Below are positions 10,797 to 32,428 of a DNA stretch of 35,246 bases, in pieces. Origin of the DNA: Natrialbaceae archaeon Tc-Br11_E2g14. Its GTDB lineage: Archaea > Halobacteriota > Halobacteria > Halobacteriales > Natrialbaceae. The notes under the pieces are model-generated. The model was not told the DNA's origin and did no database searches. It was given only the letters and a program-made list of their open reading frames with translations. Numbering within the stretch: the first letter of the stretch is position 1; the number at the start of each line of letters is the position of its first letter. Location of the stretch: positions 1 to 35,246 of the forward strand of contig LKND01000027.1 of the NCBI GenBank assembly GCA_001564275.1, in the 5' to 3' direction. The position numbers were made by a program, and so were the translations under genes.

Positions 10797-11540
10797 TCAG
10801 TCGCTCTGGATCCGCGGCGCCAACATGTAGGTGACCTGACCCTGCCCCTCGGCGAAGCCGAAATAACACTTGATCGGGAACTCCTCGCCGAGATCCATGG
10901 TGACCTCGGTATCCTTGGGAATCGCCTTGTTCATGTCCTTGAGGTAATCGAGGCTGAACAGTGAGTGGGCGGGGCCGACCTGCAGGTCGATCAGGTCCGC
11001 CGCCGTGAGCTCGAGGTGGACGTCGTCGGTATCACCCTCGGCATCGACGTAGAAGTACTCCTCGCTCTCGTCGACGCCCAGCGCGATGTGATCGCTCACC
11101 ATGTCGGCGGCCTTCACCGAGCGGTTGACGTCCTTGCCCTCGAGGACCACTTGCGCAGGCAGGTCGAGGTCCGGGATGTCCGGCTCCTGGCGGATCGAGT
11201 CCGGATCGATCAGCGCGAGCGTGTACTCGAGCCCGTCGATCTGGATGTGCAGTTTGCGGGTCTCCTCGTCGAGTTCGAGCTGGATCAATTGGCCGGACTC
11301 GGCCATACCGGCGATGTCCTCGAGTCTGGAGAGGTCGACCCCGATGAGACCGCCGTCGGCCTCGTATGACTCGAATGCCGAGGCCTCGAGTGAGAGGTCG
11401 ACCATGCCGACGTTGGCGGGGTCGACGGCCCGAATGGAGAGCCCCTCCTCCTCGAGGTGGATCTTACACTCATCGACCAGCACACTCACGGAATCGAGCG
11501 CGCTGGTGAGCGTTTCCGCGCTCACGATGGCCTTGAACAT
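10797..11540 (-). CDS. pcn: DNA polymerase sliding clamp PCNA
   Basis: The 247-residue protein begins [18 protein letters not shown] and has the two-fold PCNA topology: the central [12 protein letters not shown] and the interdomain [19 protein letters not shown], ending with a strand at [13 protein letters not shown]. Length is that of archaeal PCNA. It forms a trimeric ring that tethers polymerase, ligase and FEN1 to DNA. A second in-frame ATG lies two codons upstream (11546), and either could be used; I chose the one matching family N-termini. The protein is strongly acidic, a known haloadaptation of halophilic PCNA. A T-rich stretch at about 11566-11574 is a possible TATA box. Confidence 0.97.
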
Positions 11541-11748
11541 ATGCATCGGGATACGAACGGTCGGTACAAAAAGGCACCCTTTGGCCGCGGGCGCGCTCGC
11601 TACAGGGGCGGGCCGGTTTCCGGGCAGCGACACCCAGTCGTCGACGGCGATGGTCTCGAAGTGGCCCGCCACGGGGGCAACGAGCCGTGCCGTCACCGGT
11701 GGGTCACGGACGCTCGGAGAGTGTGGTGTTCGCCCCGGTGTATCCGGA

Positions 11749-12039
11749 CTACCCGACAACCTGACTCGTCGCCGCGAGGACCAGCCACAGCGAGAGGGCG
11801 AGACAGCCAGCGATCGCCAGCAGTTCGAGCCGACGATCGTCGACGGGGCTGGCGATCGACACGTCACGGGTGATCACGCGTCCACCGATTCCGACGAGCA
11901 ACCAGCCGCCGGCCGCGATGGCCACGAACGTCGACCCCGGCTCGAACTGCAACGAGAGCAAGATCTGGCTCAGCCCCAACAGGAGCGGGATCGACCCGTA
12001 AAGGAAGCTCAGACGGACGCCACCGACCGTGTCGTTCAT
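11749..12039 (-). CDS. Small membrane protein, unknown function
   Basis: This 96-residue protein has hydrophobic segments at about residues 10-28, 38-55 and 72-92, so two or three membrane helices, with a charged loop ([16 protein letters not shown]) between the last two. No motif is recognised. It lies between PCNA and carA on the same strand, about 120 bases after the carA stop. ATG start at 12039. Codon use resembles the neighbours, which supports a real gene. No function is proposed. Confidence 0.75.
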
Positions 12040-14790: not shown

Positions 14791-15087
14791 ATGAGTACGC
14801 CTCCACAGGAAGCCGACACCCGCACCGTCGATCTCTCGTTCGAGCAGCGATGGATCCTCCACCACGCACTCGTCACGCGAGGGGACGCCTACATCGACGA
14901 GGACGAACCCGTTCCCCCGTGGCTCTGCCGACTGCTCGACCTCCTCGAATCCAACCGGGAAACGATGACGGTGTGGCAAGGGCGAACCCTCATCAGCCTT
15001 CTCGAGGACGATCGCGGGAATCTGCCGGAGCCGGATCGAGCGGTCGCTGCCGACGTCGTCGAGGCGCTCGAAGCCAGCCTACAGTAA
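14791..15087 (+). CDS. Small acidic protein of unknown function
   Basis: This 98-residue protein begins MSTPPQEADTRTVDLSFEQRW and is predicted to be helical throughout (WILHHALVTRGDAYIDEDEP, LCRLLDLLESNRETMTVWQG, AADVVEALEAS). There are no cysteine pairs beyond one Cys, no membrane segment and no catalytic motif. It is strongly acidic like haloarchaeal cytosolic proteins and has good codon use. It has its own TATA box with a short leader of about 25-30 bases, and a palindrome at the BRE, so it may be regulated. I recall similar small haloarchaeal DUF proteins but cannot name one safely. Confidence 0.8.
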   Translation: MSTPPQEADTRTVDLSFEQRWILHHALVTRGDAYIDEDEPVPPWLCRLLDLLESNRETMTVWQGRTLISLLEDDRGNLPEPDRAVAADVVEALEASLQ

Positions 15088-15186
15088 CACTTGAAACGAG
15101 TTCTCGTAGCCTGAACGAATCGATAATCAATGGACGTCGTTGTCTGCCCCTGTCAACTCTTTTGTGCCACAGCCAGGGCACCCATT

Positions 15187-15260
15187 CACAGACACGTCCA
15201 CCACCGGGGGCACTGTCCGGCCTCCACAGACACGTCTGTCACGGGGGATGTATCCACAAA
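15187..15260 (+). repeat. 38-base direct repeats upstream of purS
   Basis: CACAGACACGTC occurs at 15187-15198 and again at 15225-15236, and the following bases are also related (CACcGGGGG). A third, weaker copy (CCACAAACGTG) begins near 15254. The second copy also contains ACAGAC-AC-GTCTGT, a 6-base inverted repeat (15226-15239). The array ends about 60 bases before the purS ATG. It may be an operator array; it is not a CRISPR (too few copies, no spacers). Confidence 0.5.
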
Positions 15261-15318
15261 CGTGCACGACGTCACAAACCCGAAAGCGTTTTTGAGCACG
15301 GTTGCGGGGTATCAACTG

Positions 15319-15570
15319 ATGAGTGCCTACACCGCCACGGTGACCGTCCGACTCAAACGGGGCGTCCTCGACCCCGAGGCCGAGACCACACGCCGTTCCC
15401 TCGAGCGTCTCGGGTTCGACCTGACGGACCTTCGATCGGCCGACCGGTTCGAGATCGACCTCGAGGCCGACAGCGCCGAGGAGGCAGCCGACCGGGTCGA
15501 CGAAATGGCCGAACGACTGCTGGCGAATCCGACCATCCACGACTACGACGTGGCGGTCGACGAGCGATAG
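15319..15570 (+). CDS. purS: FGAM synthase subunit PurS
   Basis: The 83-residue protein begins MSAYTATVTVRLKRGVLDPE and follows the PurS pattern: a strand, a GVLDPEAETTRRSLERLGF helix, the strand RSADRFEIDLEA and a final helix with MAERLLANP. PurS dimers link PurQ and PurL in the formylglycinamidine ribonucleotide synthase complex, which carries out step four of purine synthesis. The frame extends upstream to 15130, but that part is repeat-containing promoter DNA without family match, so ATG 15319 is chosen. A weak TATA (CGTTTTTGA, 15287-15295) lies about 28 bases before it. It is followed immediately by a minigene and purQ. Confidence 0.93.
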   Translation: MSAYTATVTVRLKRGVLDPEAETTRRSLERLGFDLTDLRSADRFEIDLEADSAEEAADRVDEMAERLLANPTIHDYDVAVDER

Positions 15571-15633
15571 ATGACGGGCGTTCCAACCACGATGGCTACC
15601 GTCAGTTCCGCCACAGGGAGGTGGGCGCAGTGA
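15571..15633 (+). CDS. 20-codon minigene bridging purS and purQ
   Basis: An ATG directly follows the purS TAG. The 20-residue frame MTGVPTTMATVSSATGRWAQ ends in a TGA (15631-15633) that overlaps the purQ GTG (15630-15632) as GTGA. The spacing is exact at both ends, so terminating ribosomes could move from purS through the minigene to purQ. Its middle lies in the left arm of the hairpin that covers the purQ start. Whether it is translated is unproven; the arrangement is what suggests it. Confidence 0.4.
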   Translation: MTGVPTTMATVSSATGRWAQ

Positions 15634-15647
15634 CGGTAGCCATCGTG
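15588..15647 (+). promoter_or_regulatory. Hairpin with 17-bp stem enclosing the purQ ribosome-binding site and start
   Basis: Bases 15588-15604 and 15631-15647 are perfectly complementary (17 bp, 26-base loop). The right arm contains the first codons of purQ, and the loop carries GGAGGTG (15617-15623), a strong match to the 16S anti-Shine-Dalgarno, 6 bases before the GTG. In mRNA this would hide the start codon until something opens the stem. Confidence 0.6.
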
Positions 15648-16316
15648 CGCTTTGGCGGCTCAAACTGCGACCGCGACGCCGCCGCCGCCCTCGAGCACCT
15701 CGACATCGACGCGGAAATCGTCTGGCACGAGGACGGCCTCCCGGCGGACACCACGGGCATCGTCCTCCCCGGTGGCTTCTCCTACGGCGACTACCTCCGG
15801 GCCGGCGCCATCGCCGCCCACTCCCCCATCCTCGAGTCGGTTCGCGAAGCGGCCGCCGACGGCGTCCCCGTCCTCGGCGTCTGCAACGGCGCCCAGATCG
15901 GCTGTGAATCTGGCCTCACCGACGGCGCGTTCACGACGAACAGCAGTGCACGGTTCCAGTGTGAACCCGTCTACCTCCGCGTCGAGCGCGACGACACACC
16001 CTGGACGGCCGCCTACGAGACCGGTGACGTCCTCGAGATACCAATCGCCCACGGCGAAGGGCGCTACGAGATCGACGAGGGTCGCCTGACGCGCCTCGAG
16101 ACCGACGGACGCGTCTTGTTCCGGTACTGTGATGCCGAGGGGAACCTCACGGACGCGGCAAATCCGAACGGATCGAAACACAACGTTGCGGGCGTCCTCG
16201 GCGAACGGGAGACGACGGCCGTGATGATGCCTCATCCCGAACGTGCGACGCTGCCCGACGTCGGCGGGACGGACGGACAGGGTATCCTCCGTGGGTTCGA
16301 CCAGAGTACCGCGTGA
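15630..16316 (+). CDS. purQ: FGAM synthase glutaminase subunit PurQ
   Basis: The 228-residue class I glutamine amidotransferase supplies ammonia to PurL in purine synthesis step four. It begins with GTG (MTVAIVRFGGSNCDRD). The signature VLPGGFSYGDYLRAGAIAA is followed by the nucleophile Cys in GVCNGAQIG and the His/Glu pair in MMPHPERA. Length matches archaeal PurQ. The start is fixed by a strong ribosome-binding site at 15617 and by the family N-terminus. It lies 59 bases after purS, and the gap is filled by a minigene and a strong hairpin. PurL is outside the window. Post-transcriptional control between the two subunits is an inference from the hairpin. Confidence 0.95.
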   Translation: MTVAIVRFGGSNCDRDAAAALEHLDIDAEIVWHEDGLPADTTGIVLPGGFSYGDYLRAGAIAAHSPILESVREAAADGVPVLGVCNGAQIGCESGLTDGAFTTNSSARFQCEPVYLRVERDDTPWTAAYETGDVLEIPIAHGEGRYEIDEGRLTRLETDGRVLFRYCDAEGNLTDAANPNGSKHNVAGVLGERETTAVMMPHPERATLPDVGGTDGQGILRGFDQSTA

Positions 16317-16529
16317 ACACCACGAGGGGCCTCAGCGCCATAGAATTGATTCGTTCCCACTGGCCACGACAGTTGTCTTTGGGTAGATTCCAGTAGACTC
16401 CCGACGAACGAACCGGGTCGGAACGAGGCGGCAACTGGCTGATATCTGGGCCCAGCCTCCCGTTCGTCTGGTCTGGGTGTCGTGATTGCGTGGCGCCCTC
16501 GACAGGACGATCAGCGGCGGGAGGACATC

Positions 16530-25219: not shown

Positions 25220-25330
25220 ATAGTAGCCACCGAACGTCATTGCACACCCCCCACGAGACCATGGCTCAGAACCGGTGACAAACCGGTTCTGAGCCGACTC
25301 GCTGGGAGGGTGTGTGAATCGTTCCAATCG
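25220..25330 (-). repeat. 111-bp intergenic element, copy 1
   Basis: This element is about 80% identical (hand alignment) to 32317-32428 in the reverse orientation. Its centre is a perfect inverted repeat: GGCTCAGAACCGGT (25263-25276), spacer GACAA (25277-25281) and its complement (25282-25295). The outer flanks also resemble each other in reverse, so the whole unit is a quasi-palindrome. It starts 27 bases after the stop of the phosphatidyltransferase gene and reads in the same direction. No coding potential is seen. Confidence 0.75.
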
Positions 25331-32323: not shown

Positions 32324-32428
32324 AACGAGTTACAGACCCGCACAGCGAGGCGGCTCAGAACCGGTGACAAACCGGTTCTGAGCCATGGTATCGTGAGGGT
32401 GTGTACAATGACGGCCAGTGGCGACTGT
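32317..32428 (+). repeat. 111-bp intergenic element, copy 2
   Basis: This is the second copy of the element at 25220-25330, in the opposite window orientation but in the same orientation to the preceding gene. Core: GGCTCAGAACCGGT (32352-32365), spacer GACAA (32366-32370), complement (32371-32384). Left flank matches 32/40 bases without gaps; right flank matches at similar level with one gap. It overlaps the trmG10 stop codon and precedes a convergent gene. Confidence 0.75.

What the first reader, a model, noticed from the sequence alone, without database searches (positions are those of the whole stretch)
15588..15647. 17-bp perfect hairpin over the purQ start with the ribosome-binding site in its loop
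Seen: 15588-15604 and 15631-15647 are perfect reverse complements, GGAGGTG sits in the loop, and the GTG is at the stem edge. A 17-bp stem would strongly block initiation. Such a stem between purS and purQ, whose products are needed together, looks like a translational switch responding to purine status or to ribosomes arriving from purS. I know of no described haloarchaeal example.
Basis: partly seen in the sequence, partly recalled or inferred. Interest (0 to 1): 0.72.

Follow-up and report, generated by a model that had tools for sequence, protein, structure and literature searches.

The report
Relay mini-gene and hairpin before purQ
Between two purine-synthesis genes of a salt-loving archaeon lies a tiny gene that seems to carry ribosomes from the first gene to the second through an RNA hairpin that hides the second gene's start, an arrangement repeatedly gained or lost in related species.

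Summary
The 17-bp perfect stem is real (15588-15604/15631-15647) and beyond chance. Of 176 distinct purS-purQ junctions, 103 have no insert and 73 have one; in 72 of the 73 the insert is an unbroken chain of one to three mini-ORFs from the purS stop to an NTGA overlap with purQ, at 21 insert lengths. purQ starts with GTG in 70/73 with inserts, 3/103 without. The hairpin recurs with compensatory changes (88% of cells paired; 57 double-changed cells against 20 shuffled), though 33 of 72 inserts do not fold clearly better than shuffles. An attenuator-style alternative pairing shows no covariation; no Rfam match. The core unit is nearly confined to this locus (48 of 49 matches). Best reading: a translational-coupling relay, the hairpin blocking independent purQ initiation and ribosomes handed on from purS opening it. 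Purine sensing is unsupported. Nearest known: termination-reinitiation coupling, MIRUs, Salmonella mgtQ. No expression data were available.

The parts
15319..15570 (+). purS (83 aa, stop TAG 15568-15570), upstream cistron
   Evidence: TIGR00302 E 1.2e-24; Pfam PF02700 E 2.3e-25; translation
15571..15633 (+). Relay mini-ORF, 20 codons (MTGVPTTMATVSSATGRWAQ) plus TGA; ATG abuts the purS TAG, TGA overlaps the purQ GTG as GTGA
   Evidence: the chain property holds in 72 of 73 inserts; no NCBIfam or Pfam match for the peptide
15588..15604 (+). 5' arm of the outer stem, inside the mini-ORF
   Evidence: covariation; 17/17 pairs with its own purQ start, mean 12.9 with other genomes' starts
15609..15627 (+). 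Inner stem and apical loop: 15609-15612 with 15624-15627, 15614-15615 with 15622-15623, loop 15616-15621
   Evidence: MFE fold of the window sequence; corresponds to the family inner helix, columns 34-45 with 50-59
15617..15623 (+). Shine-Dalgarno-like GGAGGTG, 6 nt before the purQ GTG, enclosed by the stem
   Evidence: sequence; motif recognised from general knowledge
15631..15647 (+). 3' arm of the stem = bases 2-18 of the purQ coding sequence
15630..16316 (+). purQ (228 aa, GTG start), downstream cistron
   Evidence: TIGR01737 E 2.7e-91; start position matches relatives in which purQ begins at the purS stop

Best explanation
The stem is the lock of a translational-coupling relay. SHOWN (sequence and comparison): the purS-purQ gap is a mini-ORF that starts at the purS stop and ends in a 4-nt stop/start overlap with purQ; a hairpin enclosing the purQ Shine-Dalgarno-like sequence and start codon recurs with compensatory changes. 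INFERRED: (1) free ribosomes cannot readily start at purQ, because SD and GTG are folded away; (2) a ribosome ending purS at TAG reinitiates at the adjoining ATG; (3) translating 20 codons, it unwinds the 5' arm and the SD hairpin; (4) it stops at the TGA inside GTGA, its footprint keeping the 3' arm open, and restarts one base back at the purQ GTG. PurQ is then made mainly from purS-translating ribosomes and, with two reinitiation steps and a GTG start, probably at a lower rate than PurS. That would fit the PurL:PurQ:PurS 1:1:2 complex described for Gram-positive bacteria (passage of PMC10912719) and would avoid making a glutaminase subunit without its partners. The peptide is probably not the product of interest.
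For: 72 of 73 inserts chain from the purS stop to an NTGA overlap with purQ across 21 insert lengths; in the other 103 of 176 junctions purQ starts within -4 to +8 nt of the purS stop. Unit lengths differ by multiples of 3 (e.g. 47, 53, 59, 65). Huber 2023 (abstract and part 1 of the Discussion read): in native pairs of H. volcanii and E. coli even about 20 nt of spacing almost abolishes coupling, so a long gap needs a relay to stay coupled. Hairpin: 88.1% of 1175 cells paired against 22-53% when slid; 10 of 25 pairs with double changes (shuffled mean 6.5, 6/500); 57 double-changed cells against 20.3 shuffled, 0/500. Own arm and start complementarity exceeds swapped, 0/10000 permutations, 51 junctions. 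Over nine column pairs that I chose because both sides vary, 28 phylogenetically independent contrasts: on average 16.9 change the same way, 0 the opposite way, 11.1 not at all. Opening -15..+15 costs 25.4 kcal/mol on average with an insert (n=72) against 16.0 without (n=103); the window, 34.8, is the maximum. GTG start 70/73 against 3/103.
Against: No transcript, ribosome-profiling or protein data. The hairpin is not in every insert: 39 of 72 reach z below -2 (30 of the 48 in A1, 9 of the other 24), and 18 of 72 have z above -0.6, including the window's near relatives L082 and L084-L086, although the mini-ORF chain holds there. The permutation and shuffle controls do not remove shared ancestry; each independent-contrast test alone is too small for significance. 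The number of further pair types is not exceptional (26 against 23.7, 60/500). Insert junctions are richer in GC (0.64 against 0.58), which accounts for part of the energy difference. Three inserts keep an ATG start. Huber 2019 found SD contributions to reinitiation highly variable, so the role of the enclosed SD is unsure.
Confidence: 0.66

Rival explanations
1. A tolerated repeat, like mycobacterial MIRUs: a small DNA unit that enters or expands at a stop/start overlap and survives because it carries a reading frame that keeps the two genes coupled. The stem is a by-product of how the unit arose (purQ start, inverted copy, purQ start, as from template switching) and is kept similar by palindrome correction rather than by selection.
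For: Presence is patchy: at least 12 changes forced by well-supported branches, 37 on the best tree (quick tree of 429 columns). Eleven of 72 chains hold more than one mini-ORF, one of them three 59-nt units. The mini-ORF start resembles the purQ start (10.6 of 15 nt with its own, 10.0 with other genomes'), so deletion between the copies would restore the uninserted form. The window stem is perfect over 17 bp while its near relatives L082 and L083 pair 13 and 15 of 17. 18 of 72 inserts fold about as shuffles do.
Against: The core unit is nearly confined to this locus in 125 genomes (48 of 49 matches), unlike MIRUs, which are dispersed. The inner stem outside the purQ copy also covaries (38:55, 39:54). 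The GTG start goes with the insert (70/73). Within the insert, paired columns are more conserved than unpaired ones (0.87 against 0.76).
Confidence: 0.2
2. Attenuator of the ermC or mgtQ type: the mini-ORF start (a copy of the purQ start) pairs with the 5' arm in competition with purQ, and ribosome stalling in the mini-ORF switches the pairing.
For: The mini-ORF start repeats the purQ start in many genomes, so the alternative pairing is possible in some, e.g. L093 (sequence).
Against: The alternative helix shows no covariation: 68.1% of cells paired against 68.6% shuffled, covariation score reached by 193 of 500 shuffles. In the window the mini-ORF start has diverged. By eye no conserved stalling codons among the peptides.
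Confidence: 0.06
3. A purine-binding riboswitch or other ligand switch at the purQ start.
For: Position in front of a purine gene; an RBS-masking stem is a usual output module of such switches (general knowledge).
Against: No Rfam match up to E 1 in 15300-15900. Conservation sits in paired columns, SD and start; unpaired insert columns vary more. 103 of 176 junctions lack the insert.
Confidence: 0.03
4. The mini-ORF is a real gene for a conserved microprotein that acts with PurS/PurQ; the stem is incidental.
For: Frame strictly kept; unpaired third codon positions are somewhat more variable than first and second (0.70 against 0.79, few columns).
Against: Peptides vary widely in sequence and length (7-48 codons) and are absent in 103 of 176 junctions. 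Over all mini-ORF columns of A1 there is hardly any codon-position bias (0.83, 0.82, 0.81). No family match for the window peptide.
Confidence: 0.05

Closest known systems
Translational coupling by termination-reinitiation at NTGA overlaps in haloarchaea (Huber et al. 2019, PMC6728339; Huber et al. 2023, PMC10666635)
   Same: 4-nt stop/start overlaps, partner genes of one complex, strong dependence on short spacing
   Different: There the two genes touch directly. Here a poorly conserved mini-ORF is interposed and touches both, and a hairpin masks the second start. Term searches of the main texts gave no purS, purQ or hairpin in either; PMC6728339 does describe, from other work, structures that mask a downstream start until the upstream gene is translated.
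mgtQ, intergenic small ORF between mgtC and mgtB of Salmonella (PMC8092293; outline and passages seen)
   Same: A short ORF between two operon genes whose translation frees a downstream RBS held in a stem-loop
   Different: mgtQ has its own strong SD, starts 51 nt after mgtC in a 219-nt gap, and works through alternative stem-loops and ribosome destabilisation. Here start and stop are joined to the neighbours and the alternative pairing is not conserved.
Mycobacterial interspersed repetitive units (MIRUs), as described in the review PMC12548453 (passage)
   Same: Short unit at a start codon with an ORF coupled to the next gene at -4 nt; tandem copies here (MIRU tandem copies: recalled)
   Different: MIRUs are described as mobile repetitive units; this unit's core is nearly confined to purS-purQ (48 of 49 matches) and carries an arm complementary to the purQ start.
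Synthetic upstream 'nonsense' ORF (PMC13255528; outline and abstract seen)
   Same: A short ORF with an internal RBS ending near the target start boosts the target
   Different: Engineered in E. coli to boost expression; here natural, in archaea, and apparently fed by ribosomes from purS.

Membership tests
Termination-reinitiation coupled gene pair | Stop/start overlap or near-zero spacing between consecutive ORFs | tested here: met
   purS-mini-ORF spacing 0, mini-ORF-purQ overlap 4 nt; 72 of 73 inserts chain
Termination-reinitiation coupled gene pair | Downstream translation falls when the upstream ORF is not translated to its stop | not testable with these tools
   needs a reporter assay
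RBS-sequestering coupling hairpin (RNA-unfolding model) | Conserved structure enclosing downstream SD and start, opened by upstream translation | tested here: inconclusive
   Structure and covariation met in the 48-row alignment but z below -2 in only 39 of 72 inserts; opening by ribosomes not testable here
Translational attenuator (ermC/mgtQ type) | Mutually exclusive conserved alternative pairings | tested here: not met
   The alternative helix that I tested is at shuffled level
Riboswitch | Known aptamer family or conserved ligand-binding core | tested here: not met
   No Rfam match up to E 1; unpaired columns less conserved. An unknown aptamer is not formally excluded.
MIRU-like interspersed repeat | Dispersed copies at several loci of a genome | tested here: not met
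   48 of 49 core-pattern matches in 125 genomes lie at purS-purQ; model hits elsewhere are weak
MIRU-like interspersed repeat | ORF joined to the next gene by a 4-nt overlap | tested here: met
Intrinsic terminator | GC-rich hairpin followed by a T run | tested here: not met
   No terminator-like site in 15080-16500 (that scan takes loops of 3-8 only, and the sequence after the stem, GCGCTTTGGCGG, has no long T run)

The most novel reading that the evidence does not exclude
A locus-bound, repeatedly gained and lost 'relay valve': a tandem-expandable 59-nt unit (mini-ORF + SD + self-complementary lock) placed between subunit genes of a complex to dial the downstream subunit down in steps while keeping obligatory coupling, with unit number (0, 1, 2, 3) as the dial. 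It would be a stoichiometry device that my searches did not list for archaea.
Probability: 0.3. Interest if true: 0.78.

Novelty: new variant of a known kind. Interest (0 to 1): 0.62.

Why it matters
Whether coupled genes are joined by the same reinitiating ribosome or by unfolding of a masked start is not settled for prokaryotes (passages of the review PMC12548453). This junction offers natural variants with 0, 1, 2 or 3 relay units and strong, weak or no stem in close relatives, so the two mechanisms and the effect on subunit ratio could be separated in one operon in a haloarchaeal host. It also suggests that conserved gaps inside operons may hide relay mini-ORFs too short for usual gene calling (not tested here).

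Tried and rejected
Off-locus hits of the covariance model (8 stretches): weak (E 4.9e-7 to 0.0095); on a crude ORF listing I saw none at an evident gene junction and took them as chance. Mini-ORF chains elsewhere: one other in the window at 11366 is antisense to a long minus-strand ORF (10797-11867) and taken as spurious; 3 others in 524 kb of strand-sequence of the longer loci L081-L233, besides 22 purSQ chains and one duplicate purSQ locus. Alternative attenuator pairing rejected. Riboswitch search negative. Terminator and sigma-70 promoter scan negative (archaeal promoters are not covered by it). RNAalifold on A1 predicted 16 pairs, agreeing on the main stem and the SD stem but leaving out columns 35-39 with 54-58.

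Rows dropped or excluded before counts: of 182 candidate loci (L001-L009, L081-L253), L110, L111 and L112 (partial PurQ matches without purS) and three exact duplicates (L095, L151, L214) were left out, giving 176. L010-L080 (71 of 80, non-haloarchaeal titles) were not used. One order-level genome with a purQ match (G147) was not fetched. G005 gave no match and G089 no good purQ match. 'Insert' means a gap over 8 nt. L109 (gap 73) is the one insert without a chain; L107 has only a 7-codon GTG mini-ORF and is counted as a chain. Alignment A1 holds 48 of the 51 junctions whose last unit fits the 59-nt register; L007, L220 and L241 (other families) were left out. The output was cut; I reran it without the lists.

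Papers: PMC10666635 outline, abstract, part 1 of 2 of Discussion, term search; PMC6728339 passages and section 9; PMC12548453 passages; PMC8092293 outline and passages; PMC13255528 outline with abstract; PMC10912719 one passage. All other papers only as search listings. ermC attenuation is recalled.

Full report
OBSERVATION. The stem 15588-15604/15631-15647 is a perfect 17-bp inverted repeat with GGAGGTG (15617-15623) between the arms and the purQ GTG at 15630-15632. PurS (15319-15570) and PurQ (15630-16316) are secure by NCBIfam and Pfam. The 161-nt region folds with z -2.23. With the purQ tail fixed and only the 59-nt insert shuffled, z is -5.47 and none of 200 shuffles does as well. No other perfect inverted repeat in the window (loop 3-60) exceeds 14 bp, and six simulated windows reached at most 13 bp.

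The 59 nt between the genes belong to an open reading frame: ATG at 15571 directly after the purS TAG, 20 codons, and a TGA at 15631-15633 that overlaps the purQ start (GTGA). The 5' arm and the SD lie inside this mini-ORF, and its stop codon lies in the 3' arm.

COMPARISON. I collected purS-purQ junctions from the window's relatives (31 genomes drawn as relatives, 125 of its family, 59 spread over its order, overlapping sets, and nine named haloarchaeal contigs); 176 are distinct. The family is probably Natrialbaceae: one member's junction is identical to that of a contig titled Natrialbaceae archaeon (L151 = L001; inference). In 103 junctions purQ begins between -4 and +8 nt of the purS stop (48 at 0, 44 at -4). 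In 73 there is a longer gap, and in 72 of these the gap is an unbroken chain of one to three mini-ORFs that begins at or over the purS stop (58 at offset 0, 13 at -4, 1 at +1; 71 ATG, 1 GTG) and ends in an NTGA overlap with purQ. This holds over 21 insert lengths, 16 to 177 nt, and both joint types (TAG-ATG and ATGA); it includes Halorubrum, Halorientalis, Halorussus, Halogeometricum and Halegenticoccus contigs (L003-L007). Unit lengths differ by multiples of three (47, 53, 59, 65). Elsewhere in the same DNA such chains are rare: 3 in 524 kb of strand-sequence, against 22 purSQ chains plus one duplicate locus. The relay frame is therefore very probably under selection, most simply for continued translation from purS to purQ; many of the 72 share ancestry, so the variety of lengths carries more weight than the count.

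THE HAIRPIN. In the family-type 59-nt unit (48 junctions, alignment A1, no gaps) a stem joins the purQ start to the middle of the insert. Of 1175 cells 88.1% are standard pairs, against 22-53% when one side is slid; 10 of 25 pairs show changes on both sides, with 57 such cells against 20.3 (sd 3.5) in shuffles, 0/500; the number of further pair types is not exceptional (26 against 23.7, 60/500). Column pair 27:68, where 68 is a third codon position of purQ, occurs as A-U, G-C, U-A and C-G, with 10 of 47 rows unpaired. Arms fit their own purQ start better than those of other genomes (14.4 against 13.3 of 17 over 51 junctions; 0 of 10000 permutations). For nine column pairs chosen because both sides vary, 28 phylogenetically independent contrasts gave on average 16.9 changes in the same direction, none in the opposite and 11.1 without change; no single test is significant. 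Opening the region -15..+15 costs on average 25.4 kcal/mol with an insert and 16.0 without; the window has the highest value of all, 34.8. Against this: 33 of 72 inserts do not reach z -2 and 18 have z above -0.6, among them the window's near relatives L082 and L084-L086, so the relay frame is more constant than the lock. Insert regions also have a higher GC content (0.64 against 0.58).

ALTERNATIVE PAIRING. The mini-ORF start often resembles the purQ start (10.6 of the 15 nt after the first base), which suggests an ermC-like switch in which the arm chooses between two partners. That helix shows no covariation: 68.1% of cells paired against 68.6% in shuffles. I reject it as a conserved feature. 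Rfam finds nothing up to E 1, and there is no terminator-like site.

LOCUS SPECIFICITY AND EVOLUTION. A covariance model of the unit matches 61 of 125 family genomes at E 0.01; by my reading 54 of these at purS-purQ, the other seven only by weak hits elsewhere. A 24-nt core pattern with two mismatches has 49 matches in 44 genomes, 48 of them at purS-purQ, and none for the reversed control; it misses the window's own diverged unit. The unit is therefore not a dispersed repeat. Eleven of 72 chains have more than one mini-ORF, one of them three 59-nt units. Presence and absence are mixed on the gene tree (quick tree): 37 changes on the best tree, at least 12 on well-supported branches. Since the mini-ORF start and purQ start are near-repeats, loss by recombination between them would restore the uninserted form; this is inference. 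With an insert purQ starts with GTG in 70 of 73 cases, without one in 3 of 103.

MECHANISM. In native pairs of H. volcanii and E. coli even about 20 nt between genes almost abolishes coupling (PMC10666635 abstract). A longer gap would thus uncouple purQ unless bridged. The mini-ORF provides the bridge: reinitiation at the purS stop, translation through the 5' arm and SD hairpin, termination at GTGA, reinitiation at purQ. Without such ribosomes the stem would hide the start. I infer that the arrangement makes PurQ dependent on purS translation and probably lowers its rate; a 1:1:2 PurL:PurQ:PurS complex is described for Gram-positive bacteria (PMC10912719 passage). The steps of ribosome movement are inferred, not shown. 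The peptide is unlikely to matter: sequence and length vary (7-48 codons), codon-position bias is nearly absent (0.83, 0.82, 0.81), and within the insert paired columns are more conserved than unpaired ones (0.87 against 0.76).

STANDING. It works like RBS-unfolding and reinitiation coupling, and like the engineered 'nonsense ORF'. It resembles Salmonella mgtQ but lacks conserved alternative pairing, and MIRUs but is not dispersed. My searches of the paper library listed no report of it; that library lacks most subscription journals. I rate it a new variant of a known kind. The main rival is a tolerated repeat whose stem is a by-product of its origin and of palindrome correction; the stem-mutation reporter assay decides between them.

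Noticed in passing
window 25263-25295 and 32352-32384: The same 33-nt palindrome (14-bp perfect stem, 5-nt loop) occurs twice, identically, 7 kb apart in the window, each followed within about 20 nt by a GAGGGTGTGT stretch; looks like a REP-type or terminal-repeat element.
   Followed up: partly
L120, L124, L163 (purS-purQ junctions): A second, different 74-nt unit follows the 59-nt unit; it again encodes a mini-ORF coupled at NTGA and, in the folds, a stem around the SD or start, as if a second relay type had been added.
   Followed up: partly
L084, L085, L086 (same genus as the window): The mini-ORF is 42-48 codons long and contains an internal purQ-like start stretch, as if two units had fused into one frame.
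   Followed up: no
L109: The one insert without a relay chain begins with tandem ACATAG repeats between purS and purQ in a distant relative.
   Followed up: no
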